Part shown: one piece after another, positions 15,601 through 41,300 of the stretch
Layout: every line of letters starts with the position of its first letter
Numbering within the stretch: the first letter of the stretch is position 1
Assembly: GCA_903813345.2 (NCBI GenBank)
Contig: CAIIXF020000005.1
Span: forward strand, 30,693,375 to 30,757,374
DNA: 64,000 nucleotides
Direction of reading: 5' to 3'
Source: Owenia fusiformis
Taxonomy: Eukaryota > Annelida > Polychaeta > Sabellida > Oweniidae
Notes under the pieces: generated by a model
What the model was told of the DNA's origin: nothing
Databases searched by the model: none
What the model saw: only the letters and a program-made list of their open reading frames with translations
Translations under genes and position numbers: made by a program

Positions 15601-17372
15601 ATAGAGACACTTAAATATTCAGATATTATGATAGCCTACTGTAAATTGAAATTTCACTGTTAACACTATGAACCTCCCATTCATCAGTATGGAGTAAATG
15701 TATTTAAACTGATGCAGTAACAATATTACTCAATACTCTTTATTTCCAGGTCAGTGGAGAATTCCACATTGAACCAGGAAGTTGCATATCCGGTCTTACC
15801 CCTCAGGGAGTTGAACAACTCTGCAGCCAGGCTGTACAATGTGGTACAGACTATTGCCAACTTTGTACATTCTCCAAGCCAGTTGTAATGGATTCCCAGT
15901 ATGACAGAGGGTTGATTTCTCAAGCGTTCGCTGATGGTATTAGGAACTATCTGCAGTATTATAGGGCACAGGTGCTACTCATTCCTGCTGATTTGACTGT
16001 TCTGCAGCTTTTAACACATTCCAGTCCTCATATGACCCAGATTAGGTATAAGAATATGATTAAAGTATTCAATGTAATTCTATGTGATAAATCTGTAATG
16101 TAAAGGCTGAACCTCCTAACTTGAATGATCTCAGATTTAACCACATAGATATGTAAACTACAGTGTACATACTCGGGTCCTCAATTTTGACATTCATCAG
16201 ACTCTTGTTATATCACCACCCCAAATGGTGACGTGACATGTTGTTATACTGTATACTCCAAATTCTTTGTGGATGGTGTTCGGCAGTTGGTGTTCAGCTT
16301 TTAAATGGCAGGTGGTGACATTTTGCATGTTAATGCCTTGCTTTATGAGGATGTGAGGGACTTGTTAACAGATTTCCTGGTTATAAATTTAGATAAAATT
16401 CAGATAAAATTCTCTCATTTCGTGTATGCATTAAACATTAGTTTTTCCCTCTGGTGTTTTAAGGAATCAATTCTGTATTTTCTAGGTACCTTGCAAAGCT
16501 ATGCAAAGTTGACTGTAAAAAGAGCCCAGGAAATGAACCAGAAGGTTCAGTTGCAGGAGATGCATTGCCTACTGTAAGTACAAATACAGTTTACTGAATA
16601 AGTCTGAATTGTATCATGGTCATCCCGCCTATTCTCATATAGTCGCTCATATAGTCGCTCAAATTCATCTTCAAACTTTCTGTTGTGTTGATTAATGAAC
16701 TCAGAACATGTTGAGGTCGTATTTCGTTTGATTTGATTGAAAAACTATATTTATTCTGGGTAGCTCTATCAGTACAAAAAGGTCAACCGCCTGCTACTTT
16801 TACATGTATTTTCAGGGGATCCAGTTGTTGAGCTATCTATACAATGAAAGTGTCAACTCTGCCTGGTCTACTAAGAACTATACACTTCTCCTCTCACTGT
16901 TAACTGCTGCGTGTAGGCCATATATCATGTAAGAAACAAAATGTGTTGGGTGTTATGTTATATTTTATTATATAAGCTGCTGTTTTAAATTACACAAAGA
17001 AATGTTTATATATTGAATACATATGTTATACTTGGTAAACTGTCTATTTTTTTGTAATGTCATTGTAAGCGGTTGTACTATACTACACTACACTACATGA
17101 AAATTGTAATTACAGTGAAACATGTGAAGTGGAACATCTCAGAAACACACTTTAAAGGTTTTACTGTACTTTGCTTTTTGTACTCTGATGTGAATCAGTA
17201 ATTCAAAAGTGACAAAAGAAAGCACATCTAGTAAATAAAATAAACTGATAAATAAACAAATAACTGAACTGTATTTACAGGTTTCTACAAGACTGGGTGT
17301 TCCATGGTATATGCAGAGACTTATACTCAGAATTTATGATAACACTACAAGACCAGTATATTGGCTACAGAG
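12694..17372 (+). CDS. TUBGCP6: TUBGCP6 exons 1-11: N-terminal region and first half of GRIP1
   Basis: These exons encode residues 1 to about 534. The first starts MEVDVKGLINKLCQHF. Exons 7-8 give LTEAGPDAVDEIYDII and then an N-gamma-TuRC block with LVEDVRNILLGLPSHTFLFDE, GLTPQGVEQLCSQA and ISQAFADGIRNYLQYYRAQ, in the same order as human GCP6. Exons 10-11 read LLSYLYNE, LLLSLLTAACRPY and DWVFHGICRDLYSEFMI. Exon 5 has two AG acceptors three bases apart (NAGNAG), so one Gln may be optional. The GRIP1 half normally makes lateral contacts between GCP subunits; the following 4.7-kb intron holds the lectin gene. Confidence 0.92.
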
Positions 17373-20300
17373 GTAAGATCTATCATTGATCTTTACATTA
17401 TTTCTCAGAAACCATATAAGAATGCAATAGATGTAGATAATTTTGTGTGATATCAATTGTTTTTTAGTTAATCATGATTCCCCATTCCTATATGTCTTAA
17501 CCCTTAAATGGTTAAGGGGGTGGCATCTGCCCCCTAAAGATGACTTGATGACTTTTTTCATAGTTTGTGTTTCGATGTGCCACTTTCTGGCTTTTTTAAA
17601 ATTGAATTAGGCATTTTTTAGCGAAAAAATTGTGACTCTAACCCCCCTTGGAGGAAAGTTAGAGCATGTCAAACTTACTGAAATACCCAAATTGTCAGTA
17701 GTTTTGACTTGAAACGATGAACCTTTATGATCTGCCCTCCCCCTATCGCTGGTGTAATTCTGTAATGTAATTCTCTATAGCCAAACCATTTAAGGGTAAA
17801 TGATTTTGTACTTTGTCATGCGTTCACGCGATAAACTCTTATTGTTGTAGATTTACATCGCAAACTCCCCCAGAACATTTCCTCATTGGCTGTGTTAAAG
17901 TTAGCATTTGTACAGTTTTTGTACCACCAGCCACCTTGTCTTGCACATGCATTTTCTGTAACATTCTCACGTGTTAGAAATGGTGACCCATTTATGTTTT
18001 GTTCTTCATTAGCTGTTCCTGAAATGGCATCAGTCATGTTGTCTTCATCTTTTGTTACAATACCAACATTTAGTCGATAAAAGTTTTCTTTGCTAGCAAC
18101 GGAAAATCTGCTATATCTTATATGGCTCCAGTTACCGTGGTGACAGTGGAATCTAACAGAATAGTTGCGACTGTTTGTAAGAGTGTAGAGATTCTCATTT
18201 CCAATCCAGTAGTATGATTGGCCAGAAGACTTGCCTCTGAAACCATTCCGATATTGAGCCCATGTTAAATTTTGAAAGTTCAAACTGTTCCCTTTTTGAC
18301 GAATTTGAATATAAGTAGGACGTTTGTTCCCATTGCCACATCGCACTGTAAATGGTGGTTTATGTTGGTCTGGTTGAACATCAAAGGAGCGATAGAAGGG
18401 GTTTTTGAAGTCTATTGTGATGTCTTTACAGTCACGTGGGTACTTTAAAGCTTTTTCCATATATAGCATCCATTGTTTATCACGTATCACATTTTTGTCA
18501 TACCTATAGAGGGGCTGTTTGGAAAAAAGTTGACAAGTTCCATTTTTTGTGTTGAAATTTGCGGCAACGCATCTCGAATCATCCTTGGAACTAGCCTCTT
18601 TCTGGCAAGTAGAAAGACATTGCACGGCAGCTATTTCCATGTCGTATGCCGCCATTGGCAAAACAGATGTCTGAATTGGAGATTGTGTATAAATGTAACC
18701 AATTTCATGATAATATTTGGTGGAATATCCAATATTGTTAAATGAACCTTTCTTGTTTGTACTTGCTTTGGTGCAAGAAAGTGCAACGAACAAATATATG
18801 AACCTATTTATTACTTTTAGATCATTCATTTTTCATTTTCTGTTATTGATTCTCTGTTCCTTCCTGACTTTAAGACAAAAAAAATGTTGTTAGCAGTTAA
18901 ATTATTATCTATGTTCACGTTTTGTTACTAAATACTTTGTGCTTGTATTACTGTTCAATTTATACAAAAAATAACAAAACCTTAATCTCTTATGTGACTA
19001 CCATGCTCTCTATTTCCATTCATAATTTATTATATAAACAGTACACAGACAAAATAAAATATAAAGCCAGAGGTCCCAAGAGAAATGTGAAATATACATG
19101 CCAAATAAATGATTGTGTTCTCTCAATTGTTGGATTAATCAATATAGGAGCTGTTGATTAATATCTAGTATAACAAAGCTGTTATGTAAAAATTCCATCA
19201 AGTACTATGTAAGGTATTGATCGGTTGAAGAGATCAATTACATTCATTTCATAATTGTTATATATCATTTTAACATTACAAAGTTTAAAATGAAAATAAT
19301 AATTGAATGCTGAATTTACAGATATTATATCTATGTCATAATTGTGGTAAAATGTACTGTGGAGATACAGTTCGTCATACAGCCCCAAGCTTAGGATATA
19401 TGGCTTATTGTGTAATATACTGATTTAAGACATAAAATAAAGTCAATTGATATCATATTTGAAATCAACATATGAAATTACACATACACTTTGGTGTTGA
19501 GAAGTGTTTATCAGATATGAACTTTTAAAGGACGGGTGTCATTAAGAGCCCTTTTTAGCCCCCAAAGATATCTGATAATAATGCATATCATATTGAAGAA
19601 AAATCATTTGTGCTTTATAAAAATACAATTTCAGCGAATTTTGACCTTTGATGTTCACACAACAGTCATTTAAAGATCATATACCATTTTTGGTGTTTTT
19701 ACAAAAAATTCTTTATTTATTGTTGTTTAAGTCAATAGTATGTAAATATTAACCAATTTAAATATATTAAAATGTAATATATGAAATACTGAAGAAAAGA
19801 TACAATTAAAATTATTTTCATGGAAAGCACATGGGGCAATATTGACAAAATGCAAATGCTATTTTGGTAGGTTCTGGGCTAGCAATGGGTACATTTCAAC
19901 TGTGACTGTAATGGATTACTATTGACTTTTATCAACATCACAGGGCAATATTTAAGCAACTTAAATACAAGGAAAATCAAAGATTTCCTCTCATTTCTAA
20001 AACGAGGAACAAAAGCATGAATTCAAGGAAAATAAATGATGGCCTGTGTCAATTATATAACATATGAGAAAGTTGTGGCACAGTAAAGGATATGTATAGG
20101 ATATCATATGATTTTAAATGATTTTATCTTTATCTCCGAGTTGATATCAATATATTGCCAAGTTAGCATAGCGAATTAGCGCAGATATTGATATCAATGA
20201 GTTGGATTAACACAATATCACGAAAATGCATAGGATGTTCCATTTTCCCATAGTTCACCTCTAAAACTAAACAAAGCATATCAAAACAACATCCATTCAT

Positions 20301-23300
20301 TCATTCATCCCCGTGATGTCATGAAATCACTATGTAACAAAACACATCATATTGGTGGTAGTTTTCAAATCCCTGCCAAAAGGTGATATCTGTGAAATAT
20401 TTTCCGTATTCCACAGATATCACTTTTTCCACGCATTTGCAAAATATCATAAATATGTTTTTATGTTACCCAACAGAGCGGAACAGAGTTCAACTATGGG
20501 ATAAAGAATAAAAAATAGGTACATAATTGAATTACCACTCCAAAAATATTAAATATGAGGGTTTAAAGAAAGAATATTGAATATGAGATTCAAAAAGACA
20601 AGTGGCCTCATGTCTCACGTTACCCAAACCCCAGATCCTTGATGTCATATATACTTGTATACTGTATATCAATGTTATTTACTGGGAGGATTAAATATGG
20701 AGTGTATAGCAATGGTCAATACGATATTTCCAGATGGATATTTTTCCCTAGAAGCGGAACCCAAACTCAGTCATGACATAGAAGCTAACTTTTGCAATTA
20801 ATAGAAATTTGTTTTTTATTATATTTTTGTGTTCTATATTTGAGATGAAATAATATGAGATTCATTTCTACAAGAGGATGGAACGAATGTGAACTTGTAT
20901 ATTGACCTATACTCCTTTTCTGATTAAACAGAACAACATTTTATCCAAGCCAATTAAGAAAACCAAGGCCAATGAGTGTAATTTATGCCCAGTTAAACTA
21001 ACACAATAACAACTTTTTGTCTGGACTCACTTATTATGTAAGAATGAATTGTATTACTGTTTACTGCATTAAATGTCAAGTATACTATCTGTATTTAATT
21101 TCAAATGCCTATCTCACTTATCGAAGGTATACAAGAAATGTTATTTTGAAACAAATTCAGCACAACCAAAACCATGTCCACATAATATGACAAATCCAAG
21201 ATGGCTGCCACAATTTTAGATCTATGCACATGTGAAGAAGTTAGAAATACACATGGTCCACAAGTTCCATCCCCAATAAAATGGGAAGTTTAAGGTTTTC
21301 ACACGTATCAACTCTATTCCTATATACTTTATATTTGTGGTAAGGCTTGTGATCTAGGTAAACTTAGCATGTTCATGTACCTCCTATCTTCTGAAGCTAA
21401 AAACAGAAATAGTGACTTCAATTGAGAAAAATGAATCTTATGGGCTCCATATACATTTTGAGTGGCTGTCCGGCTTAAGTTAGATACTACTGATAATCTG
21501 AGATTGAAAATTATGTCAAGTTTAGTCCTCAGCCTCTCATAACGGATAACTTCGAGGTAATTGTGTTGTGCAAAAACCTCTATTTCTTCATCACAAATCT
21601 ACCATCTTTTGCATCTGTCAAAACCCCTCATTTCATTATAATTTTCAGACTTTTGCTTGTGCCATCATTAAATATATATATTCAACTTGTTATTCAGAAT
21701 ATTTTAAGAACTTTTCATGAATTTTTTTATTTTCACACTTTTGAAAAAATGACTAAGTCAGAGAATGGCCTCTTAATGGCATGTCCCCTTTCTTGGAGTG
21801 TGACTTCTATAATTCCCTATAGAGCCCATGTTATAAAATCATGAACAGTGAGATATTTTCTTGTTTTGGTTAGATAGTATATTCTTTTACTTTACATATT
21901 TTCAATTTTATAGTTGTCAATCTCAAAAATCTTATATAATATGAAAATTGATCCACTAAATCTTGAAATTTCAAGTTCAGTGCCTATCTGAACAAAAAAC
22001 AAGTACAGTAAATAAACCTGGGGACTACAGAGTGAGAAATTATACCTGACATATTATGACAGTCTATTTGCTATATTTCCAGACCGCCACTACTGGACAC
22101 ATGTATTTATCCAATCAAAACAGGAGTCTGGTGATGTGGTTCCTATATTCTTACAACAAATGTCAGATGACATCTTTGTCTGTGGCAAGTCAATCAACCT
22201 TCTCCAGCTATGCGCTCCAAAGGTATGATATGATTAATGTTTCATTTTATGTTGAGGAAATACATTTTCATCTTTCAGTGATTTAACAGGGTGTACTGTA
22301 TTGTTTACAGTCCCAAGAAAAAATACTTGAAAGTGAATTAAAGTGCAGCGGGGACTGGCCAAACATTGAAACATTTTAATATATCAATTGCCATTCCTTA
22401 TGATCTGAACTCACAAGTGTTGGCAATATGATGGACAATATATATTTTCACGAATAAAATTTGAGCAATGTGAATATGTTATGTCATTTTTGATCACATG
22501 GTTCTTCATTAACCAATCAAGTACTGGGATATACCAATGATGTAATAAGCAATGTGCTCCAAAACACAGGTGTACATATTCGATCAATGTTTCTAATTTC
22601 TAGACATTGCCTAAAAATTAGAAAAATGGATTGAAAATTTGAATTTTTCATCAATCAGTAGAAATGACAGGGTCATGTTATAATCTAGAAATAATTGATC
22701 TCATTATTTCTATATATTATGAAATATATATAAAGATATGTAAGGATAAAATTCATATGTTATTTTGTAGCATTTCCTGTTTGGTGTTGATGTACAGATT
22801 CCAAGAGTTGAGATCACCTTCTCTCAGGAGGAGCTTGTTGCCATGACGACTGATGTGGAGATGTATGTTAGTTACATGAACCAGGTTGCTAGACATAAAG
22901 CTTTGACACGGTAAGGTTCTACCTATCTATGTTTATAGAATATTTTATGTATGGATACTTAACTTCCAACTCGGTAGAATTAAATTTCATGTATCACTGG
23001 ATATAGTGGACATCCTACTTTATATTATACTGGATATTGAATGAGTCCTTCTTAATGCTATTGTCACCCACACATCTATATATTCTGTAGCATAAAAGTG
23101 TAACATGTATCAATTATCTACAATTGTCTAACTTTAACTGTAAGATTGCAGGTTCAAGATAGCTGAATTCTCATTTTAAGGTACTTGAATAAAATAGGTA
23201 CCTTCATTGCATTTTACAGTGAGCAGATGAAGGAGAGATTGGAGAGAACCAGACAGGAGTTAATAGACAGGGCTAGAGATGTGGCCTTGGAGCGCAATCA

Positions 23301-26300
23301 TAGGATAAACAGTAAGAACAAACTCTTTCTGCAAAATTAACAATACTTATTGAATGCCGTACATGTATATGGACATTAATAATGGGAAATTGACACCAGA
23401 GAATCATCAATGACACTTTGTTACGAAGTTAAAGCAATGCAATTAATAATGTTTTTTTTCATTTTTCAGTTATTTACTGTTTTGTAGTTTTGTAGCTACT
23501 GATACGCTGAACCATTATATTCAACCAATTACATACATACTGTACATACTATTAGGTAGAGGTGTCAAGTATTAACCGGTTAACTGGTTAACCGCCGATA
23601 ATGCATTGACCGGTCTGTGTTTTTATGGGCGGTTAGTTGACCGTGTATAATTCTGTGATTTCCCGCGCTTATTTTGCATGCTAATCCGTTTGGTTTTATG
23701 GTGTCAGTTTCACGTAAGCTACTCATACATGTCATAAGTCCCATTACTCCTTACAAACATCCAATCAGCAACTTTAATCCCTGCCACATTGCTTTCCCGC
23801 GTTTACTTTGCATTTTAATCTGTTTGTTTTTCAAGCGTCAGTTTCATGTGAGCTACTCATACATGTGACAGGTCCGATAATTCCTTACAAACATCCAATC
23901 AGCAACTTTAATCCCTGCCACATTGCTTTCCCGCGCTTACTTACAAAGAATAGAGTAAAGCTTGACGAACGTAAAAAATAAACGCCGATATATCATTTTT
24001 CCAACTTTTTCAACTTTCAAGATCGAAGATGAAGATTTCATTTCAAATTATCAGTTCAAATTTCCCGCTGGTTAACCGACTTTAACCGGTAAAAACCCCC
24101 GGTTAACCGGTTAATGCTCAAGCGGTTAATTGACACCACTACTATTAGGTGAATAACTCCTCACTAAGAGTATGGCCAAAATTACATCAAAAACAATTGA
24201 AATCCAGTGATCTTTATCTAAGATGTTTTTTGGTATTAATCAAACCCCTCCAAACAATATGCATGCTTGTTGTGATTATAGAACAGATTCTGGCAAGAAG
24301 GATGGTGGAAGATGCGAAAAAGAGAAGAAATTTGCAGGAACTCAAAGAGAATATGCAGAAAGACCTTAGGGTATAACTACATTATACATTGTTCATTTTA
24401 TTATCTTTCTTTAAGTTTAAACATCATTATGCCAGTATCCCTAGTTACCAGTTTTAGACTTGAAAGGGATGGGCTATGTTTGAGGACATTTAATTTAAAT
24501 GAATGACAAATGTTGAAAAATCTCAAATAAAAATCAGCAGTATGAATTGGTGAATTAAATGCATGCTAAATAGAAACTTGAATATATTGTTTCACAATTT
24601 TCTTCCATCTCACTTGGATTTGAACCCAAGTCCCTTCAATAACTGGTTATATATTCTAGCAACATTGCTCAAAATTATGAAGCTTTCTCTATTTTAGCGC
24701 CGGCTGGCAGAAAAAGAAGAGAAACAGGAGGAAGATGCAGCATACATGGAGTCAATTAATAAACAGGAATCTATACAAACAACCATTGATGCAAAGCTAG
24801 AAGAAGAAGCAAAGTAAGTAATGCCCATGTTTAAGATATAAAAATATTACAATAGGAGGATAAGCTAAAGGTTTTTAAGAGAATTTGGATGTGAATATGT
24901 AATATTAGGACCTCCAGGGAGTTCTATCCCCTTTTTCATTTGGTTCTTTGAGGTACATAATTTCAACTATTTTCCCGTTACTTTTAAATCAATTGGGGAT
25001 TGTGTATTCATTAAATGAAAAATCTGCACTATCCAAGACAGATGAATTAAATTGAAACAAGGTAGTTAGTGAAACAACACTGATATATTCAACATAGGCA
25101 AGAGTTAATCGCCTACTATGGCCAGCTGTCTGAGGAGGCCACATTTAGAGAGCTGAAGGCAACATGGAAAGTACGTAGAGCTCGTCTTGAGACTGCACGG
25201 ATGAACTTCATAGAGAAGGACAATTCGTTACTGAGAGAAGAGCTAGAGAAAAATCCATATATCCCAGGGATGGTAAGTCATGAGATTATGTATCTCATTT
25301 TCATTTGTCATTTTTGATAATACTTGAATAGATTGTTGAAACATTGTGCCAAGGTCAGTTTTTAATTTGAATGACCCACGGTCCACTTTGAATTAGAATT
25401 AGAATGTTGTTCTACACTATGTGCAAAAGGTCTGCAGAGACCCCTGATTAAATTGAAAGTCACTCAGAGGCTGGGTGAAGTTCATGATGGATTTGATTGG
25501 TCTAGATTGATTAAAATATGTCAATAATTGATCACTGTATTGTAGCCCATGGCAGGAAGTTCAGCAGTGGACAGCTCAATGGAATCTGTGTACAGGCTTC
25601 TAGACTCAACTGTATCATTAGACTCCACCATTCTTCAACCACAACAACTAGTCACCAATGCTGATACCAACAACATGAAAGATGATCCACAAAGTGATGA
25701 CCATCACATGTCTGGACTGCCTCAGTGGGCATCCCAGACATACACAGGAACAAAGATTGTTACTGATGAAGATAAGGTGGATGATGTTGAAGACAATATG
25801 CCTAAATGGGCTAAAAAGGCTGTTGAGTCAGATGATCATGATCCAGTTTTTGTGGAGGACTCTGAAGATTATTTAGATAAAGAAATGAGCCTTAGTAAGA
25901 GAGCACTTCCTAACTGGGCACATACAAACCTATTTGCATCAGAAACTGATGAAACTAAAGGGAAAGAGGACTCTATTCAAAAGGCCAGTGAATTTGGCCA
26001 CGCATCTGATGAAACTGAAGCAAAAGAAGATGCTATTAGAAAGGCCAGTGAATTTGGCCATTCATCCGATGAAACTAAAGCAAAAGAAGACACCATTAAA
26101 AAGGCAAGTGAATTTGGTCACGCATCGGATGAAACTAAAGCAAAAGAAGAGACCATTAAAAAGGCAAGTGAATTTGGTCACGCATCTGATGAAACTAAAG
26201 TAAAAGAAGACACTGTAAAAAAGGCCAGTGAATTTGGTCATGCATCTGACGAAACTAAAGTAAAAGAAGACACTATAAAAAAGGCAAGTGAATTTGGTCA

Positions 26301-29300
26301 CGCATCTGACGAAACTAAAGCAAAAGAAGACACTATTAAAAAGGCCAGTGAATTTGGGCACGCATCTGATGAAACTACAGCAAAAGAAGACACCATAAAA
26401 AAGGCCAGTGAATTTGGTCACGCATCTGACGAAACTAAGGCAAAAGAAGACACTATTAAAAAGGCCAGTGAATTTGGGCATGCATCTGACGAAACTAAAG
26501 CAAAAGAAGACACTATTAAAAAGGCCAGTGATTTCGGGCATGCATCTGACGAAACTAAAGCAAAAGAAGACACTATAAAAAAGGCCAGTGAATTTGGTCA
26601 CACATCTGACGAAACTAAAGCAAAAGTAGGCACTATTAGAAAGGCCAGTGAATTTGGTCACACATCTGACGAAACTAAAGCAAAAGAAGACACTATTAAA
26701 AAGGCCAGTGAATTTGGGCATGCATCTGACGAAACTAAAGCAAAAGAAGACACTATTAAAAAGGCCAGTGAATTTGGTCATTCATCAGACCAATCAACTC
26801 CTTTAAGTGACACAGAGAGACTAAAAAAATTCAAAGAATTGAACAAACATGGTCACCATGCTTCAGAAGAAACCACTCAAACTGATGAAAAACCTAAAGT
26901 AAAACCTAAAGTGGGTCACACTTCAGATCAATCTCAGCAGGTCGACACAGATGCAAATCGACTTCAAAAATTTAAAGAACTTAATAAATTGGGACATCCA
27001 TCCATGGAAAGTGCAGCATATGATATCCAAGAACATGGTTTGTTCTACAAGCCCTTAAGGCAGAAATATCAAGCATTCCCAAGTGCTCAACAAGCCAAAA
27101 GTGCGCAACCGCAGCAGAAGCCACATACGTCAGATGAATCTAAATATGAAGATCCAGATCGGGTCAAATTGAGGAAATTCAGAGAAAGAAACATAAAAGG
27201 TCACTCATCTGATTCCTCTGTGCAACGATTACTTTATGAACAAGAGCTGGCACCTGACTCACCACAGAAAATACACAAAATAACAGGTACTTCAACATGT
27301 CCATCAACATTACTGTGTATTTTGCAATTTGAATTAAATAAATTATTTTGTAATGGACTATAAAAGAAAAATAGCAATAATATCAGTGAAGGGGATGGAT
27401 ATTAACTACATTTAATAAAACATTAATAAAAAAATTAAAAAAATACACTTGTGACATGCAAAATATCTGTCGCTCGGAAGGTATCATATATCGCTCTGAA
27501 TAAACTCTGTATATAAACCTCAAAGTATGTAACCCGCTTAACATTTTTATATTCCAGAGGAAGAAGGGGAATCCGAGACTCCAGATGTTAATATGTTTGC
27601 CGATGGGTCACAACAGTTCAAATATACAACTGACTTTAAATTGTTAGGTGAGCATTACGTAAATATAAATTGAAACACAACATATTAGATTCACGTAAGA
27701 AGATTCCATATTTTATGATCATAAATCACCAACACATATTACTGGGTGTAAGATCCAGATACACATACTGTCGCTGTGTATACACAACTTTTGATCCAAA
27801 TATTTAGCACACATTAACCAATCTTGGCATGTCAAATGTTTGGATAAATCCAAAGTCATTTAGATATGCAGTTTATCAAAAAAGTAAAACTAAGGATGCA
27901 AGATCAGTTTTTACAAAAATGGAACAGTGATATGAAAGTCAGTACTAAAAGTTACAACTATAAAATATTTAAAACAGAATTTTCATTTGAACAGTATTTA
28001 GAAGTGTATGCCAGATAAATATAGAAAAGTTTTGATTATGTACCGAATGTGTAATTATAAACTTCCAGTTGAAAGAGGACGTTATAAAAATATTCCAAGG
28101 AAAAATAGGTTTTGTGATTTACGTGCTAAAGGGATAGGTGATGAATTTCATGTCATTTTAGAATGCAAAGCTTTAAGTTATATTAGAAAAAGGTACCTTC
28201 CTAAATGTTATTTGACAAATCCAAACACACAGAAGTTTGAGAAATTAATGAATTCAAACAAAAATATACTTATAAAACTTTGTAAATTTTTAATTGAGAC
28301 TGGGCAAAAAAATGTACGGTACATTTATAATGTAATGTTATTTTAATGTTTGTTACTGTATTAGTTAAGTTTATCTTTTGTACTCTTATACCCTATAAAG
28401 GGTGAATAGAGAAATCAATAAATAAAAAAATAAAAAATACAATGTGAATACCAGAAGAGAACCAGAAACTGTTGCATTGTTATCCATTAACTCTGGAAAT
28501 TCAAATTGTTATTTATTCATTCAAGATGATGCCCCGATGGTCGATCTGATGAAAAACACTGTAGAGGACCCCATAATGCGAGGTCTAAAAGCAGGTTCTA
28601 CTGATGTAAAGGCACATGAATACCTGACCCTACCTGTGTTACTGACACGTTCCATCACTATTCCTCTTCAAGCACAGTAAGTATGATCCTTCCATGAGTG
28701 TCATTTTATGTTTAATTTCATTACATCACAATCTAGAAGTTGAATACATTTGTACATGCCAGTACAATTTTTTAAATGTTAAAGGTGTTTTTATTTTAGA
28801 TTGTTATTAACTTCTTTTGGGACCAATTATTTTTATTTTACATTTAAAGCAGATCTTGTGTCTAAAATTCTTCAGGTCAGGTGTCCAAGAGCAAGAACTG
28901 TGACAGATATTCTGTCCCTTGCTGGCTCCCTTGGCACATATGTCTCCCTTGGCACATCTGTCCCTTGCTGACTCCCTTAACACATGTATTGCTTTTAACA
29001 ACTAGGACCTTTATTAAGATGTTAACATGTTTATTCTTATTAACTGCCTCTCCAGGATTGATTTGGTGAATAAATGTACAGTGGATTACTTCATAGCAGA
29101 GCTGAAGATTAATGACCACTTTACTGCATTAAGGCAGTACCTGCTGATGGAGGATGGCGAGTTCTGTGAGACACTCTCAAACCAGCTCTTTGAAAAGGTG
29201 AGTGATTAATATACTGTATAATCATATTCTTCAACCCACCTTTACCAATATAATTTGTCGTTGTTTTTCATTTTGACTCATTTCTGCTATATTTACATGT

Positions 29301-32300
29301 ATGCTTTTAATATTTTTACTTTAACATAGAGGGCATGGTTCATCTTTATTGTCATTATGTCACCACCAGAAGTGTTGACATATTGTTATAGTCTCCAAGT
29401 TTTTTGGATGGTATTTGCTGGTCAGAGTTCAGCGTCTGTAACAATTTGCATTCAGATCTGTAACAATTTGCAATTACATACAAGGTGTGACATTTTGTTA
29501 ATGCCTTGTTGAATTTTACTTTAAATTATAAACTAAAAACAAGGGGATGTTTGTGACTTGATTGAGTGTGCATTTTATTCTCAGTATACATTTTCTAGCT
29601 TGGTAGTTCCCCTGAACCCTCCCAGATTTTGAACCCTGTATTTCTGAACAATACACTGAAGAAAGCACTTGGTTCCTCCCTGAAAGGTGACAGAGGTCTT
29701 GGGAGTAACATCAGCTTCATCGTCAACTACATCCCAACTGCCTTCCAACAAAATGGTAACTACCATACCTTTGTATTATTATTCTATTGTTTAGAATATA
29801 CACATAATAAAATAGAGGATGACTTGGAGAAGAACCATTATGGTGATTTCCCCTTCGCCTGTTGCACTTTTTTCAACATTTTCTGTTGATCGAGCATTAT
29901 TCTATTTAATTCCAAAATAATCCTATATTTTTGTATTATTTAGAACCAAATGTGTTAGATTGTCTGGGACTGAAGTATCAAGCTGAATGGCCCCTAAATA
30001 TCATCATAACTGAGTCATGTATGACAAAATATACCAAGATCTTCACCTTTATGCTGTCATTGAAACGTATCGTTTGGGTACTGAAGGACATTTTCAGCAA
30101 ACTGAAGAGAGATGGTAAGTAAACTTTATTTAACTTTTGTAAAATATATCCTTTGTAGTTGTTCAGTGTTATAATGAATTACTGAGATATTCGCATTGTA
30201 AGGAGTTGGGTGTTAGTGGCTGGCACCTGTATCAATTATTTACACTTCTGTAACCATTTGCAGGTGATGGAAATTTGCCTTGTATATGCATGCTATAGTT
30301 TATTTATGCTTTTATTGGGATTGGTATCATTTTAAATCCCACGTTTCACAAATTCATATTGTTTATAGAATCAGAATTGTTTTGCATTTCTTAATGTTGT
30401 TACTTATGGCTCCTTTAATAAAATGAGCATTTTCCTGTAACTTAATACATGAACCAGGAAGTTTGTTTAAAATATTTTTTCAGACGACGAAAATCTCTCA
30501 TCTTATTGGATAACCAACTTATAATAGTTATTTACTCAAATTTCTTTACTCAGCTTGAAAATGTCACCAAAAGTATTAAGTTATCAGTTTTGTGTACACA
30601 CTGGATTATTATGTGCTTGTTCTGACAGTAAATATTTATTTTAATTTTTTACGAAACTACCCTGCTCCGAAAATAAAGCATTCATTTTTATAACCATGCA
30701 CAGAGACAGACAAGTTAATTTAAAATGGATAGTTTAACAGTTCTGTTTCTCCTCAGTCTAAATCTGCATTTCTGTGTTGCAGAATTGACATTTCAGATAT
30801 GTTATGGCAAAGACAATCCAGGAGCACTCTGGAATGTAACACATGAAAAGGAAATGTGGAAAAATGTAACATTGTATAAAAGTCTTAATGGCACAAATTG
30901 TGGAATCGTTGATTTACCGAGACTTTTTACCCGTGAAGATTTGTCTTGTATGAACCATAGTTTTGTAATTGAAAAAGTAGAACTCAGTTTTAATTTGATT
31001 TCATCGATTGAAAATCAAACCTTTAATTGTTTGAAGGAGCTCAAATATTTGGACCTTAGCCATAATATGATAAGTGAACTAAAAGGGGGAATCTTTGATG
31101 GTTTAGTGAACTTGGAGGTTGTGAAACTAAATGACAATAGGATCCATTCCATGGAGGATGGTGTATTGACTGATAAACACAAGCACATCTCATTCCTTGA
31201 TCTTAGCTGTAACATGCTGACTGTATTTGGGGGAAACATTGACTTTTTTAAAAGATATTCTGCTAACTCCTGTATAACAGTCAATGTTACTCACAATGCT
31301 GTATCAAAATTACAATTGGATTTAAACAGTTATCATAAAGTTCGTGACAGTGACTTCATCTGCTATTATGTGTTTCTTCAGTTCAACAACATAACTGATT
31401 TGAATCTTGGTTCATTTGGAATCTTTGTTGATGCTTTAAGTAAAAATGTAGCCAAATCATATGAACACGAGGAGATAGATCTCCGTGACAATCCTTTCAT
31501 CTGTGACTGCAACGTCCGTCTATTTCATAAATTAATGCAGTCGTTCAAAACAATCTTCAAGCAAAGGTTTGAGTGGCTAGAACTAGAAAAACTAAAATGC
31601 GCATCTCCGGAAAAGCTTGAAGGATCTTCCATAGCTGAGCTCCCATCTGAGGAATTATTTTGTCGAGTCTACAAACACTGCCCATTTTCATGCCAGTGTA
31701 TATTTAAGGAGGATTTTGACGAGCCGAGTATAAATTGTGAGTAAAGCATCAGTTCATCTAAGGAAGTAAAAAGTAGGTCATATGTATGATCAGATAATTT
31801 ATTTTTATCATATTTTGGAGATCATGTGTCATGTATATTTTTGATTTTATATAACAAGGCTCCTTTTGAACAGGATACAATTTGTTTATAATCCTTGTTT
31901 ATAGTTGTTTATAGTTCAGATAAATGCATTGCATTCATTGAAAACTCTTACTTGCATATTTTGCAGATCTTCTCCCTGAGAATACTGGGTACTTAAGAGT
32001 TCTATGCGCTGGCCAAAATCTGACAGCACTTCCCACTTTGATCCCATATAGATATAAAGATAAGCTACCAACACAATTACTTCTCAATTTATCACAGAAT
32101 AGCATTGAACATCTTGTGCCTTTAGATTACATTGAACTTGTTACACATTTGGATTTGAGCCACAATCGCATCAAGGATTTATCTTTATCGATGATGAAGA
32201 TTTTTTCTAACTTATCTGTGCTGTACCTTAATGGAAATCATCTTCAGTACATGCCAGAAGATATGAGGACTATTCAGTTTAGGAACATGAAAAAAATGCA

Positions 32301-35300
32301 CCTAAATGACAACAAATTCATATGTGACTGTAGTAGCATTTGGATGGAAAATTACTTTGCAGCCATCAGAAACAAATTGTCCGTCATGCCAAAATGTTAT
32401 AATAAAGATGCACTGATAAATGATATGAAAATCAATCAAACATTTTGTTGGCTGAACATGACTGCTCTTTTGTCATGTACCATTACACTAGGGATTGTTC
32501 TTTTAATTGGTGCACTGATTGCATACTACCTATACCCTTTGGTAAAGATATTATACTGCAATAGAATAAATGACACGGCTGCTGAAAATATGGATGATGT
32601 AAAATATGATGCTTATGTTATTTACCACCCAGATGATACAGAATGGGTGATTGAACACATCATCGGATTATTGGAACCTCAATACAAACTTTGTATTCCA
32701 CAACGGGATTTCAGACCTGAAAATGATGAACTTCTTGTAGACATTATCATGAGATCACTGGAAGAAAGTAGGCGAAGCATTGTTGTCTTAACACAAACTT
32801 TCATACGTGATAATGAATGCAAGGCAGTATTTGCACAAGCACATGGTTATTTTATGAGAAATCCATCTCAAAAAATGATGCTTGTTGTCCAGGATGAAGC
32901 TATTTTGAAAGACAATTGTTTGGATGATGGAATTAATCTGTATATTAAAACTTGTACATATCTAGCATTTAGAAAACGCTTTTTCAAGAAAAGAATTTTA
33001 AATGAGATGCCTATTAAAAGTATTCAAGATTTTAATCATGCGTAATCAATCAATATCTTACAAGCAGACGAATATCATTTGTCACACAGTTTGACATGTT
33101 CTAGAAGAGACATTGAAAATTGATGTTAGTATTGAGAAATTTTGAAGTAGAGTCAATAAAGTTTGATTCAATGTAAATAATAGATGGTGTTTGTTTTTTT
33201 AAACCCTTACAAAGAGCTGAAAGAGCTGAAAAGCTTTTAAATTGCTGTATCTCTTGCCTTGACTATATTGATAAAAAATCATTAAAGTAATGATACAATA
33301 ATGTCTCAATTGCTCATATGCAATTCTTAGACCAAAAGACAAGTCTCGTTTTGGAGAACAGTCTCCTGGGCTAATAATTCTTTTGATGAAAAATATAGAA
33401 ATTTCACCCCAATTAAAATATGATTATTCAAAATAGAACATTTAAATCTACAAGATGTAAAATATCACAATTGTCCGAAGCAGGGATAGTGGTGCAGTAG
33501 ACCAATTCAATAGTATACAAGCTTCGTTTTTGAGAAAAAAGTTCATCAGCGTACTGGGCTAATAATTTTTTTTTGAAAAATCTAGAAATATCACCATAAT
33601 TAAAATATAGCTATTCAAAAGAAGACATTCAAATATATTTTATGTAAAAAATCAAATTTGTGCGAAGCAGGGATAACACTCAATTAGAGTGATGAACTTC
33701 ATTCTCCAAACCAAGAATAGCCCTTTAGTGTATATTATTAGGCTGAATAGTGGAACAGTTTGACCGAGATGATATAGCTTTTGTAGTTCAAGTAATTTGA
33801 TTGGGCTGAAAATATAGAGACAGTGAGTTTCCAGTACTTCTCTTTAATATTACACTTAGCTATATATTTGATCAAGGGAATATTCTGAAATGACAGTGCT
33901 TGTGAAAGTTTAGATCAGATTATTATCCCATCGAACGAAGTTCGGAGGGATATAGGGAACGCCTCTGTCCATCCGTCCGTCCGGGCAATAACTCAAATAC
34001 CGTTGGCCCGATTTTGTTCATATTTTGTACACATATACCCAATGGGGGTAGAAGTTCTGCCTGAAACCGATTTTTAAAATGGCCACTCATTTAAAAATGG
34101 TGGCCATTTTAGTGCCGATTTTACAGTTATTTAGGTACTGCATATAAAACTGTAATAGCAATATGTTTTTAATGTAAAAAAGTTAGGTATGACATTGATT
34201 AAGCTAGAAATGTAAATACAGAAGAAATACATGTCAGCCATCTTGAAAAATGGCTGCCTTTGCACGCCATTTTACGATTTTTGCTGTAACTTGAAAAGTA
34301 GTTGAACGATTTTGTTCATATTTGGTATGTGAATACTTTAAGCATGGCACAATGTCTAATGACATTTTGGATAGTAGGCGAAAAATGGCCGCCATTTTTA
34401 TGTGTGTTATTTTACATTATTTACTGTAAGTCAAAAAGTAGTGGAGCGATTTTGTTCATATTTGGTATGTGAATACTTTAAGCATGGCCCAATGTCTAAT
34501 GACATTTTGGATAGTAGGCAGCCATTTTTCAAAATGGCCACCATTTTTATGTGTGTTATTTTACATTATTTACTGTAAGTCAAAAAGTAGTGGAGCGATT
34601 TTGTTCATATTTGGTATGTGAATACTTTAAGCATGGCCCAATGTCTAATGACATTTTGGATAGTATGCGGCCATTTTGAAAAATGGCCGCCATTTTTACG
34701 TGTGTTATTTTACATTTTTTACTATAACTCAAAAAATAGTAGAGCAATTTTGTTTATATTTTATATGTGAATAATATAAGCATGGCACACTGTCTAATGA
34801 CACTTTGGGTAGTAGGCGGCCATTTTGAAAAATGCAGCCATTTTTTACGTTTTTACTATTACTTGAAAAGTAATGTAGCAATTTTGTTCATATTTGATAT
34901 GTGAATACTTATGAGCCTTGCACACTGTCTCATGACACTTCGCGTAGTAGGTGGCCATTTTGATAAATGGCTGTAATTTTTACATTTTTTACTATAACTC
35001 GAAAAGTATTGGAGCGATTTTGTTCATATTTTATATGTGAATACTTTAAGCATGGCACATTTTCTAATAAAACTTTGGGGAGTAGTCGCCCATTTTGAAA
35101 AATGGCCACCATTTTTATGTGTGTTATTTTACATTTTTTATTATAATTCAAAAAGTAATAGAGCGATTTTGTACATATTTGATATGTGAATACTCGTAAG
35201 GATTGCATACTGTCTTATGACATTTTGGGTAGTAGGCGGCCATTTTAAAAAAGGCCAGCATTTACATGTATGTGTGTGCCATTTTTTAGAAATTTTATAT

Positions 35301-38300
35301 GTGGCCACTTAAAAGCATATTACCTCTTCTGATGACAACTTGGCTAGTGAGCAACCACTTTGAAAATGGTGGCCTTTCTTATGGGTGTTGTTTTATGATA
35401 TTTGCTATATATTTTGTTTGTAAAAATGCCAGCCATTTCTGTTCGATGGGATTCGCTACGCTTTGGCGTTGCCGTTGTTCTGGTTTTATTACCCCATCCT
35501 AATAATGAATCACGGGAGAAACAAGGAAGTTGTGAATATAAAATATAGTTTGCACAATCTTTAAGTGTGTTTTATAGACCAATCATGTAAACATTTCAGT
35601 TTCTTCAGGAACTAATACTAATAAAACATGACTCCATAGCAACAAGGTTGTGATCATAAAATTAGTTCGCACAATAATAGCTGCTTTTGTACATTTATAA
35701 CTGATATATATTATGATTATTATCTTATGCAACATACTAACATTCAGTTCATTATGAACACAATGGATACATTAGTTATGTTATTTGCAATACTCCTGAT
35801 TGAGAGAGTGTCACCATGGTGTCAACATTGCAACTGCACAAATTATATACCGACTGATATTCAAGTGAAATGTAGCATTGGAAAATTTGTGAATCTGACA
35901 CAATTAGAGGATCCTACCAAATATGAAAGAATTTTGTATTCCAGAGGCTATCTATCGAGCATACCCATAGATTTATGCAGGCTGAAGAACTTGAAATATA
36001 TAGATTTATCTTGGAATAACATTACAACACTCCGGTCTAATCAGTTCCAATGTTTCAGAGCCTTAGTGCACCTGAAAATGCAAAACAATGCTATAAGGTA
36101 CCTACCCATTGGAGTATTTGAAGGTTTAAACAATCTACAAACGTTAAACTTAAGCTCAAATGATATACACAAAATTGAAGAAGATGTCTTCAAAGAGAGT
36201 TTCGAAGAATCTATGACATCTTTGGATATTTCGCATAATAACTTAGAATATGTTCCTAGTGAAATCATGGATATAATATTCAATGCTACTCCTTTAAACA
36301 GGCATAGGTTTTTCAACCTCTCACACAATCATATAACATTTTTCGAAGAAGGAAGTCAAAGTATTAATAAATATTATGAGTATCTGAGCATAAATGAAGA
36401 ATTTATGAAGTTAGACTTAACATTTAATAAGGTAACACATATAGACATCAACTTTCTATCGCCTTTAGGAATTAAAAATGTTGATAGCTTTGAAACATTT
36501 TGGGGTTCTCGATATAGGATAGGTGTATTTTTTAGTATACTTCTTCATAACAATCCTCTCATTTGTGATTGTAACAACTTTTTGTTATATAAAATTGGAA
36601 CTGAAACTATGAACTTGTTGGCAGTTGGGCAGTTGAACTTACCTGAATCCGCAATGATTGATAGGACGGGAATGGTCTGCAGAGGTCCACAAGAATTTAA
36701 TGGGACATCTCTGTTCAATATGAAAAATGAACAATTTGTGTGTCCTGTTGACGGTTGTTTACCCAAATGTAGTTGCATTTATAGCGCGCATAATGAGACA
36801 TTAACAGTAGATTGTTCAAATATAGGACTTACTTCTTTTCCAAAAAAGATTCCTTCTTATCCCGGTTCACCTAATATTACTCTCAATATTTCTGGAAACA
36901 GAATAGCACATTTTGAAGAAAGGATATATTTAAGTAGTATCACTATATTAGATGTCCGTAACAATTATATAGAAACTATTGACATTGCAGCAATTATCAA
37001 ATTGATTAAGATCAGAAAGTTGTATCTTCAATCTAATCATATTAAGTATTTACCTAAGGAGATTACTGCATTACAGTTTAATGGCTCAATTGGTCTGTAT
37101 AACAATTCATTTGTATGTGACTGTTATTCTATATGGATGACAGACTGGATCAAAACACTGAAAAATCTCTTACAAGAACCTGTTTGTATCAATGGAGGAG
37201 CTAAAGTAAGAGATTATATAGAGGATGAGTTAACATGTTACATTAACCTCAAATTAGCTGTTGCCTTGCCCCTTACATTTGCTGCTGCTATCATGTTGTT
37301 TGTGGGATTGTTATATCATTATAGACCACTCATTGTGCTGTGGTGGAGGCATAAGGTTTATCGAAGAGCTGTACATCCTCAGCACAATATTGATGAAAAG
37401 ATATTTGATGCTTTTGTTGGATATGAGAAGAGTGATGTCAACTGGATCAAACATGAGTTGATACCTTTACTGGAGCCCAAGTACAAGCTTTGTATTCATC
37501 AGAGAGACTTCCCAGTTGGAGACTATATCATCGAAACAATTACAGAGTCAATATCAAAAAGCCAGTGTAACATTATGGTGGTATCAGCAAAGTTCATTGA
37601 AAGCCAGTGGTGTCTTGAAGAATTTGCAATTGCCCACAAATACTACATGGCATTCCCTGCTGAGAAATTGATCATGATTATACTTGATGACCATATTAAA
37701 CAAAGACCTATTACAAACAAGCTTGTTAAGTATTACATCTGTTGTGGAGTCTTTATTGAGGCAAATGCTGCTGATTTTCATGCAAAACTGTTGGCTGAGA
37801 TGCCATGTAGATCAGTAAGGGACAGAAATGATGAAATAGGAGAATTGGATGACTATGTCTAGATTTGTAATTGACAATGTCAAGACATCATTATTTGAAA
37901 ATGCAAAAGGCATGATATTCTGATAAATCATGTGTACAAGGTGGGCCTGAAAATAACATACATACAGTAAAACCTAATCCAAACCCTATTGGGACCAGCC
38001 AAAACTGTTCCGATCAGCAGGTGTTCACATTTTAGATATTTTTAAATATGTGAGAGTAGGGGATAACAACTTTGGGACTAAAGAAAGGCATTCACATTGA
38101 GGAGTGTTCGGTTTAGAGAGGTGTTTGGATGTACAGGTTTCACTGTATTGTAAATAAAATAAAATGTATTTGTTTCACATTAGATACTATATGATACATT
38201 AATGTGATTATAATTTGATGTATAGGGTGGCGCTAAATGTTGGATCCCTTCCATTTTGGAATAACTTTGTTATGAATAATGATAGAATCCTCTTGGTTTT

Positions 38301-41300
38301 GTGTAGAAAGAGTCCAAATGGAGAAAACCATACTAATTTAGCCTTAAATCAGTTTTAGTTTTAAAGAATATGGTATTATGGGTCTTAGCATGATCTTTCT
38401 AATTTATCTTACTCTAGTACTACAACAAAAGCATTGCAGATTCAGTGCACAGTATAAGTGATAAAAATAATGCTGTCCATCAACTGCTACTACATATATC
38501 ATTCTAATTTAAGCACATTTTGTGGGCCACCCTTTATAAAATCATTGTTTAACATAAGTAGGAATATACATGTATACAGACATTCATGTGTGTAAAGATG
38601 TATTTGTTATATACATACTATACTATATTTAACCAATTATGGAATTACATGTAATTTCAACATTCTGAACCATGTAAAATAAATATATATGTAAATAAAT
38701 TCCTAAAAATGTACATTGAATTATTTTGTATTCACTTCAGGGGAATGTTTCATGGTCAATTAAATGGAGGATATCATGAATTACACAGTTACAATGTTAC
38801 ATGCGATGTATTTGTTTTTTGTAATGTGTTCATTAGCAAGAACAACTGCCAAAAATCAGAACAACATTTATAGTTGTACTTGGGCAGTGGGACACTCTAT
38901 TGCCACTCTATTGAATATCAAAATTTTGCCATTCTTATATTCCCATGGAGTACTTGACACCATGCCCCCAACATTAAAGGTGTAAAATTATGGTCCATGG
39001 GTATTTATTAAAATAACTTTCTTAAGAATGCACATGAGGTTTGTTGTGAGGCAAGAGTGACATTATTATAACCAAAGGAAGAAGTTTAGTTGGGATATAG
39101 TGCTGCCCTCCATCATTCAGACTGTCCATACGTCAGTCAATCCATTTGCACAGACAATTATTAAACTTCCAGTGAATCTGTTTCCTTTATAGTTTAAAAC
39201 TGATGGCTGGAGTAGCCATTTCCAATGACTTACCCCTTTTGTAATTACTTGTTGTTCGAGTCATTGTAATCAGATGATCTGATCTTGGGACATCTTGATT
39301 AATCTAATGAATATTAGAAAACACAAGGACATTGAAAAAATGCCTCATTCTGAAACCAGTTTTGTTCTTGTTACCAAATGCTGGATTTTCATTGGTCTGT
39401 TCTAGTATAGTGACATCTATAAATACATATTTTTCTGTTCATTTTACGAGTGTTGGTCAACTCAGTGAGGGAAAAGATTTCCAGAACAGGCTGTAAAATG
39501 TACTCTGAACACGCCAGAGTATTTTGAATACAGATTCAGATTCAGATATTTATTACTATTTTGAAAATTATATATGACATTCAATACAACATGACGCTCT
39601 CAAGAGCATATATGTTGGTTTTAACTGGACAGAAATGGGTCAGTGACACCAACAGGTAAGACAAATAAAAATGGAGTGGAGAAATACACTGGCCCAATGA
39701 CACTGGCCCAAGTCTGTTGGAAATAATTTCAAAAATGTAAAAAATATTAACACTCGGGGACAGAGACACAGGACACGAGAACGGGTAATTGCTGCTAAGT
39801 TTATAATATGTATATATATAAGTTGATAAGACAAAATGTGGCAGAGTACAGATTTTCAATAGTAAAGACATTTTCAAATCTTTAAAACTATAAAGGTATG
39901 TCATTTATTTTATTTTGTTTGAACAAAGACTTAAAAATTGAGAGTGAGGCTGCTTGTCGAATATGATGAGATATAGAATTCCAGATTTGCTGACCTTGCA
40001 CTTTCAGTGAATAAAGGCCAATATTTGTTTTGAACTTGGATGCATGGATATAATGTGAATGTCTAGTTTGATACCGATGAATGTCAACATTTAACGTAAA
40101 ATAGTTTTCAAAAATCTTGCGGTGGACTAATATATTGTTATACCAGCAATAAACAAAAATTCCAACATTTAATTGATAGATATCATGCACTGGAAGTATT
40201 CTAAATTGTTTGAAAAGTGGAGCCGAGTGCTCAAACCTGTCTTTTCCTGCCATGAGACGAAGGTATGATTTTTGTAATTTGAGTAGTTTATCCGAAGCTG
40301 AATATGCTCCGGCCCAAATGATTGTGCAATAATTCAAGTAGGAATATATTAAAGAATTATAAATTGCTAACATACTTTTTATGTTTAGCAAGTATCTGCA
40401 TTTGAATGAGATTCCAATGGTTCTAGATATTTTTCTTTCTACATTTTTTATGTGACTTTTCCAGTCAAGGAATTCATCAATTGTTACTCCCAAAAAATTT
40501 ATTTCATGAACCCTATCAATTTGTTTTCCATTTATAAATATTTCAATTTGTTGACAAATCTTTTTTCGTTTTTTGGAGAAGACGATGAATTTTGTTTTTG
40601 AATAGTTTAAAGAAAGGAGGTTTGCTTTAAACCAGTCATCAAGAGTAATGAGTTCCTGATTAACAGTATTTACAAGTCAAGTCAAATTATGGTCAGAAGC
40701 TAGAAGATTAGTGTCATCTGCAAATAAAACAGATTTAAGACTTTGTGACGCCGTGAACAGGTCATTAACATAAATGATAAATAAAAGTGGTCCCAAAACA
40801 GATCCCTGAGGGACTCCCTGGGAAACAGTTAGGGTGTCAGACAGGGCACCATCATAAGAAACAATTTGTTTACGATTTTGAAGATAGCTTTTAAAAAAGT
40901 TTTGTTCAACTTGTCCGACACCATAGAAGTCAAGTTTTTTTATGAGAATATCGTGGTTGATAGTGTCGAACGCTTTTGACAGGTCAAGGAAGATTCCAAT
41001 GGAGTATTTATCATTTTCAAGAGCCAATACAGGCTCTTTGCATGAAATAATTGTTTACTTACATGTACATCTATTTCCAGGGTCTGTTTACAATGCCCAG
41101 AATGCAGCAGAGCTACGTCAGCTACAGCTTTACAGGTACATTTGACAGAAACATAATGCTTAAGATATGTTTAAATTATTTGCATCAAAAAGGTCTAAAA
41201 TTTTGTAAATATATCAGAGAAAAGACAGTGAATTTTTCAATGCGATCAAAGATTTGTACAAAAGCTCAACTTAAAAAGAATCCATAAATAGTAATTGCAT

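What the first reader, a model, noticed from the sequence alone, without database searches (positions are those of the whole stretch)
17816..37862. Three putative immune-receptor genes nested in introns of one gamma-tubulin complex gene
A PAN+FReD lectin-like gene (antisense, intronless) and two Toll-like receptors (sense, one intron and none) are fully contained in TUBGCP6 introns 11 and 23. Nesting of same-strand genes is unusual because host transcription runs through them. The shared location of pattern-recognition candidates in a housekeeping gene's introns suggests either a permissive open-chromatin niche for retained gene copies or co-regulation. Seen: positions, strands and intact frames. 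Inferred: immune role and any coupling.
Basis: partly seen in the sequence, partly recalled or inferred. Interest (0 to 1): 0.75.

Follow-up and report, generated by a model that had tools for sequence, protein, structure and literature searches.

The report
Immune-type genes nested in GCP6 introns
In a marine worm, three intact immune-receptor-like genes really do sit inside two introns of one cell-division gene, but such nesting is a known kind of gene arrangement, seen at least twice more in this worm's large receptor family, and nothing found here shows that host and guests work together.

Summary
The window is Owenia fusiformis chromosome sequence. A 27-exon, 1770-aa TUBGCP6 (GCP6) gene runs 12694-43328 (+). 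Intron 11 (4710 bp) holds an antisense PAN+fibrinogen-C gene. Intron 23 (10966 bp) holds two same-strand Toll-like receptors, TLR-A (one 230-bp intron) and TLR-B (none). The other 24 introns are 188-1016 bp. All three frames are intact; TLR-A's spliced product equals a deposited Owenia protein letter for letter.

The niche or co-regulation idea is not supported. The genome has at least 123 TIR matches, 76 with an open frame of 600 aa or more, scattered over the chromosomes. Two of 20 TLR neighbourhoods fetched are also shown to be nested, antisense, in a carnitine/choline-acyltransferase gene and a FEZ gene. Nesting thus looks like a recurrent by-product of a dispersed, mostly single-exon family. 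'Permissive open chromatin' is disfavoured: host exons are CpG-depleted (0.29), the sign of germline gene-body methylation, and both TLRs share that footprint at codon-boundary CpGs (0.27-0.28; host 0.32).

Testable: same-strand TLR transcription may clash with GCP6 transcription, and nested receptors may be held silent by host methylation. No RNA data were available here.

The parts
12694..43328 (+). Host gene TUBGCP6 (GCP6), 27 coding exons, 1770 aa
   Evidence: Splice model; PDB GCP6 E 1.8e-244; exon 8 single match
17373..22082 (+). Host intron 11, 4710 bp
17816..18829 (-). Nested intronless PAN + fibrinogen-C (FReD) gene, 337 aa, signal-peptide-like start (by eye)
   Evidence: Pfam; 337-aa entry P0121; three 58-62% relatives
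30115..41080 (+). Host intron 23, 10966 bp
30725..31736 (+). TLR-A exon 1 (ectodomain up to second LRRNT)
31737..31966 (+). TLR-A intron, GTGAGT...TTTGCAG, 230 bp
   Evidence: Sequence; spliced product equals NCBI protein P0126
31967..33045 (+). TLR-A exon 2 (LRR, transmembrane stretch by eye, TIR, stop); 696 aa in all
33155..33160 (+). AATAAA 110 nt past TLR-A stop
33919..35488 (+). Dispersed repeat with subterminal inverted repeats and central tandem repeats (helentron/HINE-like by eye and recall), between the two TLRs
35727..37862 (+). TLR-B, intronless, 711 aa, two LRRCT-type blocks and TM stretch (by eye), TIR
38153..38158 (+). AATAAA 291 nt past TLR-B stop
39888..41039 (-). LINE reverse-transcriptase remnant next to host exon 24
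   Evidence: RVT_1 E 9e-20 for 40692-41039; ORF 39888-40676 joined to it by eye, no Pfam hit of its own
41081..43328 (+). Host exons 24-27, completing the C-terminal GCP domain downstream of the TLRs

Best explanation
These are nested genes of the ordinary kind with an unusual content. Compact, intronless members of two large dispersed families (P-type TLRs and PAN-FReD proteins) landed in two introns of a housekeeping gene, and each kept its own start, stop and (inferred) promoter and poly(A) site. The two TLRs most likely arose from one insertion and an old duplication in place. Purifying selection keeps the frames open (shown by frame integrity, and by dN/dS for the FReD family; the selective role is inferred). 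The host is transcribed through them and splices them out (inferred). In the germline they lie in a methylated gene body (inferred from CpG loss), so they are probably silent there and switched on, if at all, from their own promoters in some adult cells. No functional tie between host and guests is needed.
For: Host and guests verified. The two guest-bearing introns are the only ones over 1016 bp; guests and mobile elements fill 7179 of 10966 bp of intron 23. At least 123 TIR matches genome-wide, 76 with a frame of 600 aa or more. Two further TLRs lie inside an acyltransferase intron and a FEZ intron, antisense (with 45, 67, 83). The FReD gene's three closest relatives are intronless, on three other chromosomes, with DNA similarity confined to the coding region. 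dN/dS 0.35-0.43 against these three. Neutral drift would have put stops in all three frames. TLR-A and TLR-B fall in one subfamily of 11 (100/100) and are sisters in the best tree (66/40, weak). Codon-boundary CpG ratio host 0.32, TLR-A 0.28, TLR-B 0.27.
Against: No RNA evidence was reachable. The sisterhood of A and B is weakly supported and both sit on long branches. The FReD gene is only 1014 of 4710 bp of intron 11, so it does not by itself explain that intron's length. The codon-position count of changes unique to the nested FReD copy (18/16/27) shows only a slight third-position excess, though the test is biased against third positions. Which way intron loss or gain went in the FReD family is unresolved (2-exon relative L044, intronless more distant L043). 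FReD is less CpG-depleted than its intron (0.64 against 0.31), and single 1-kb windows in the host body reach 0.75 (23-24 kb). No AATAAA or ATTAAA was found behind FReD; of its three near relatives only L040 has one within 600 nt.
Confidence: 0.85

Rival explanations
1. The host gene's introns are a permissive, co-regulated niche in which immune genes are kept for function.
For: Three pattern-recognition-type genes in one host; coexpression of opposite-strand nested genes and their hosts is described as relatively common in C. elegans (PMC12274878, abstract).
Against: Other TLRs are nested in unrelated hosts; at least 123 TIR matches are spread over the chromosomes; the host body is CpG-depleted, i.e. 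inferred methylated, and in Nematostella loss of gene-body methylation opens chromatin and causes spurious intragenic initiation (PMC13345969, abstract).
Confidence: 0.07
2. Interference switch: when TLR-A or TLR-B fires in the sense direction, GCP6 transcription ends early in intron 23, giving a GCP6 without about its last 168 residues, or less GCP6. It could act on top of the best explanation.
For: Sense orientation with AATAAA 110 and 291 nt after the two TLR stops; the sense-nested Mcts2 gene drives intronic polyadenylation of its host H13 in mouse (PMC13309782, passages).
Against: No RNA data; in mammals expression divergence of nested pairs is not different from that of unnested genes (PMC8467205, abstract).
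Confidence: 0.12
3. The nested frames are relics or pseudogenes without transcripts.
For: No expression evidence in hand; TIR box 3 F-W is not apparent in either TLR (by eye, recalled motif).
Against: Open frames after large divergence; a deposited gene model joins TLR-A exactly at the predicted splice.
Confidence: 0.06
4. The nested arrangement is an assembly artefact.
For: None found; raw reads could not be looked at.
Against: Host exons are collinear on one 42-Mb contig around the guests; host exon 8 has one match in the genome.
Confidence: 0.02

Closest known systems
Intronic nested protein-coding genes of animals (nested pairs 4.3% in mouse to 8.7% in opossum among seven vertebrates; PMC8467205, first part of the text and passages)
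   Same: Short, mostly intronless guest wholly inside one intron of a many-exon host; such nests are said to form by insertion of duplicates
   Different: Here three guests of two immune-type families in one host; two are on the host's strand (a minority orientation)
tim2 / 2mit of Drosophila (PMC3786989, passages)
   Same: A protein-coding gene of two exons inside host intron 11
   Different: 2mit is antisense and its nesting is conserved across Drosophila; age of the Owenia nest is unknown
H13 / Mcts2 of mouse (PMC13309782, passages)
   Same: Guest on the same strand as the host
   Different: There intronic polyadenylation of the host has been shown; here it is only predicted
NF1 with EVI2A, EVI2B, OMG; CHAT with VAChT (recalled, no call)
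   Same: Several guests in one host; guest on host strand in the cholinergic locus
   Different: No functional link shown here, unlike CHAT/VAChT
Radiated TLR families of spiralians, e.g. 39 in the transcriptome of the oweniid Galathowenia oculata (PMC8609888, passages)
   Same: Large TLR set; P-type/mcc layout
   Different: No word beginning with 'intron' was found in that paper's main text, so gene structure is apparently not treated there

Membership tests
Nested (intronic) gene | Whole coding sequence inside one intron of a verified host gene | tested here: met
   guests at 17816-18829, 30725-33045, 35727-37862
Nested (intronic) gene | Independent transcript | not testable with these tools
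   No RNA data; deposited separate protein for TLR-A is indirect
P-type/mcc Toll-like receptor (TLR-A, TLR-B) | TIR domain | tested here: met
   PF01582 32.6 and 50.1 bits, cut-off 21.3
P-type/mcc Toll-like receptor (TLR-A, TLR-B) | LRR ectodomain | tested here: met
   LRR_8 over cut-off in TLR-B and in TLR-A exon 1; TLR-A exon 2 below cut-off (22.4, cut-off 27)
P-type/mcc Toll-like receptor (TLR-A, TLR-B) | Two LRRCT blocks with an LRRNT between | tested here: inconclusive
   Read by eye in both; Pfam LRRNT in TLR-B 22.2 bits, below cut-off 25.8
P-type/mcc Toll-like receptor (TLR-A, TLR-B) | Signal peptide and one transmembrane helix | not tested
   Hydrophobic stretches seen by eye only
PAN-FReD lectin-like protein | Fibrinogen_C and PAN domains | tested here: met
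   74 bits against cut-off 22; 24.6 against 21.4
PAN-FReD lectin-like protein | Ligand binding / immune function | not testable with these tools
   None
Retrogene (FReD gene) | Intronless copy of an intron-bearing parent | tested here: inconclusive
   2-exon relative on C11 (L044) but an intronless, more distant relative on C12 (L043)
Retrogene (FReD gene) | Poly(A) tract and target-site duplication | not tested
   Flanks were printed but not searched for these; flanks of the four intronless copies share no similarity at E 1e-3

The most novel reading that the evidence does not exclude
In a mosaically methylated animal, dispersed immune-receptor genes survive inside methylated housekeeping gene bodies. 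Host gene-body methylation keeps them silent in germline and embryo, the global adult loss of methylation reported for this worm releases them, and sense-oriented ones then trim their host's transcript. The TLR family would thus be split by neighbourhood into methylation-gated and free members, as its two-humped CpG distribution suggests.
Probability: 0.12. Interest if true: 0.75.

Novelty: new member of a known kind. Interest (0 to 1): 0.4.

Why it matters
It turns a curiosity into a testable system. Owenia has a published genome, developmental RNA-seq, ATAC-seq and base-resolution methylomes. TLRs that are nested and CpG-poor, nested and CpG-normal, or in CpG-normal surroundings allow a direct test of whether host gene-body methylation governs intronic guest genes, and of how an animal tolerates genes on the sense strand inside a microtubule-nucleation gene.

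Tried and rejected
Rejected: a frame-breaking insertion in TLR-A (canonical splice sites restore the frame and a deposited protein agrees; another acceptor slightly downstream would also keep the frame, by eye); chance open frames; a recent tandem pair (A and B are 27.7% identical); mobilisation of the TLR by the helentron-like repeat (the two other copies seen share its ends and have no TLR between them); alternative exons of GCP6 (each guest has its own start and a signal-peptide-like N-terminus; by eye).

Led nowhere or weak: the codon-position test on the FReD copies; Rfam scan of the window, 0 matches at gathering cut-offs; nesting status of most other TLRs. The 20 fetched neighbourhoods (L009-L028) cover 18 of the 20 top-ranked TIR places, ranks 23 and 25, and one lower-ranked place next door. 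From the flanks of these and a few other loci I scanned 20 different exon-like stretches with Pfam, 25 scans with re-cuts (chosen by coding score and by eye). Over cut-off: acyltransferase (2 stretches of L016), FEZ, DUF3419, OTU. Below cut-off: MT-A70, and weak coiled-coil-type matches in L022. Only the acyltransferase and FEZ cases were followed to both flanking exons, and both proved nested; the other neighbourhoods are undetermined, not shown to be un-nested. The MT-A70 (METTL14-like) exon beside the C9 FReD paralog could not be followed because the genome search stayed busy. The FEZ N-terminal exon was first sought by motif inside L017 and not found there; it lies outside that stretch. 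A home-made exon finder recovered 15 of 26 host exons among 19 predictions, so absence of exons in a flank means little.

Literature: one search for TLRs nested in introns listed 3 papers, none on this by title and start of abstract; a search for intronless TLRs in annelids gave 0; none of the 10 listed (of 31) held 'toll-like receptor genes'; none of the 10 listed (of 123) held 'nested gene'. The library holds open-licence PMC papers only, so this is no proof of absence from print.
Full report
Where it is. The window is contig C5:30693375-30757374 of a 498-Mb genome. The published assembly has 505.8 Mb and 12 chromosome-scale scaffolds (PMC9977687, passages), so this may be another version of it.

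The host. Splice-site chaining gives 27 coding exons from 12694 to 43328 (+), 1770 aa. A 1218-aa version, most of the repeat exon left out, matches GCP6 chains in the PDB (E 1.8e-244), GCP5 and the others far behind (E 6e-24 or weaker). Exon 8 has one genomic match. Introns 11 and 23 are 4710 and 10966 bp; the other 24 are 188 to 1016 bp. In intron 23 the two TLRs, a dispersed repeat and a LINE remnant fill 7179 bp; in intron 11 the FReD gene fills only 1014 bp.

The guests. The antisense gene in intron 11 (17816-18829, 337 aa) has Fibrinogen_C and PAN domains. TLR-A (696 aa) and TLR-B (711 aa) in intron 23 have LRR and TIR domains over Pfam cut-offs. TLR-A's intron (31737-31966) was predicted from the sequence; the product equals an NCBI Owenia protein over all 696 residues. 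In the published annotation 31,678 of 31,903 transcripts had RNA-seq support, but I could not link this entry to that set. Frames this long do not arise by chance in such introns (338 and 740 aa against simulated maxima of 180 and 195, 200 runs each), and neutral change at 5% of sites would have put at least one stop into each frame in 95% or more of 500 runs.

Origins. The genome holds at least 123 TIR matches, 76 of them with an open frame of 600 aa or more. TLR-B's nearest full-length relatives are only 30-34% identical and lie on C11, C9 and C2; a partial TIR match on C4 reaches 49%. In a tree of 23 TLRs, A and B belong to one subfamily of 11 (support 100/100) and are sisters in the best tree with weak support (66/40), which fits an old duplication in place; both have long branches. 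TLR-A's intron lies at the second LRRNT, while the split relatives on C9 and C4 break near the TIR, so it was probably gained separately. The FReD gene has three intronless full-length relatives on C6, C1 and C9 (58-62% identity), one at 46% on C12, and a two-exon relative on C11. DNA similarity stops near the ends of the coding region. dN/dS against the three is 0.35-0.43 with dS 0.71-0.85; a cruder codon-position count gave only a slight sign of constraint.

Not the only nest. Flanking exons show two more TLRs nested, both antisense. One, at C9:27590294-27593179, lies between acyltransferase exons covering profile 61-95 (C9:27589600-27589746) and 126-175 (C9:27600450-27600599); the piece for profile 96-125 was not located. 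The other, at C8:6200949-6203288, lies between FEZ exons covering profile 1-43 (C8:6194323-6194451) and 44-85 (C8:6205510-6205635). I could test these two of 20 fetched neighbourhoods because a known domain happened to be near; the rest are undetermined. So at least 2 of 20, besides the window's own pair. In seven vertebrates nested pairs amount to 4.3-8.7% (PMC8467205). An excess in Owenia is therefore neither shown nor excluded.

Chromatin footprint. In Owenia adults 20.92% of CpGs are methylated; gene-body methylation goes with high and stable expression, and methylation falls over the life cycle (PMC11292947, abstract, section 6 and passages). Observed/expected CpG is 0.29 in host exons and 0.39 in small introns, against 0.64-0.80 per kb in the 7-12 kb gap before the gene, part of which is a copy of the dispersed repeat. 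TLR-B has 0.29, TLR-A 0.42, FReD 0.64. The host body is not uniform: 1-kb windows run from 0.06 to 0.75. GpC controls are 0.91-1.06 for these classes and 0.81-1.37 in the gap windows. At codon-boundary sites the ratios are host 0.32, TLR-A 0.28, TLR-B 0.27, FReD 0.54. Among 22 single-frame TLR paralogs the same ratio is two-humped: 14 at 0.50 or below, 8 at 0.76 or above. Coding CpG follows flank CpG (20 of these 22, the C1 pair left out: Pearson 0.59, p 0.006; Spearman 0.50, p 0.026). These paralogs are top TIR hits plus near relatives, not a random draw; split or partial copies were left out. The acyltransferase-nested TLR is CpG-normal in CpG-normal surroundings (0.76; flanks 0.79 and 0.98), the FEZ-nested one CpG-poor in CpG-poor surroundings (0.33; 0.27 and 0.22). 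There are exceptions, e.g. CpG-poor TLRs with flanks of 0.5-0.6 (L018, L022) or one flank of 1.0 (L028). So nesting itself does not bring the loss; the neighbourhood goes some way to predict it. Methylation is inferred from this, not measured.

How it works, most likely. Shown: nesting, intact frames, constraint on the FReD family, recurrence of nesting, CpG footprint. Inferred: insertion of intronless copies, own promoters, silence in germline, splicing-out with the host. The sense TLRs carry AATAAA 110 and 291 nt after their stops. If used by the host's polymerase they would remove exons 24-27, about 168 residues of the C-terminal GCP domain. H13/Mcts2 shows this can happen with a sense-nested gene (PMC13309782, passages). 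FReD has 443 bp between its stop and host exon 11 and no AATAAA or ATTAAA there (variants such as CATAAA occur), so it may use a variant signal or overlap exon 11 in antisense.

Verdict. A true and tidy case of nested genes, ordinary in kind. The guest content, the two sense guests and the CpG contrast make it a useful test case, not evidence of an immune niche.

Noticed in passing
window 25946-26780 (host exon 18): GCP6 carries about 14 near-identical 20-aa repeats (...KKASEFGHASDETKAKEDTI...); vertebrate GCP6 also has repeats with a GHVSD-type core (recalled), so the repeat idea may be old though unit length differs.
   Followed up: partly
window 33919-35488, 7206-8772 (-); L024 8146-9300: Dispersed ~1.5-kb repeat: 5' end TTATCCCATCGAACG, 3' end ...CTGGTT, subterminal inverted repeats and central tandem units; looks like a non-autonomous helentron (by eye, recalled). 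One copy ends about 240 bp before TLR-B's start, another lies near a close TLR-B relative on C9.
   Followed up: partly
window 36001-38000: The 1-kb window over the end of TLR-B has 2 CpGs (o/e 0.06) while the one before has 14 (0.54): a sharp CpG boundary inside one exon.
   Followed up: no
L042 317-409 (C9:23357746-23357838): A METTL14-like MT-A70 exon (E 1.4e-4, just below cut-off) with a good donor lies beside the C9 FReD paralog on the other strand; motif search found no next exon in the 3.9-kb locus, so this paralog may be nested too.
   Followed up: partly
window 51938-52109 and 52824-52995: Two 172-bp arrays of a 16-bp unit that are reverse complements of each other, about 700 bp apart, inside the TTL-family gene region.
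   Followed up: no
L022 11-286 and 9326-9553: Exon-like + strand segments on both sides of an antisense TLR (C1:20283); possible further nest, no Pfam hit over cut-off.
   Followed up: partly
window 3311-6801 and 45512-61306, minus strand: Neighbours: a SPIN90-domain gene upstream and a tubulin-tyrosine-ligase-family gene downstream (one Pfam-tested exon each; extents by coding score).
   Followed up: partly
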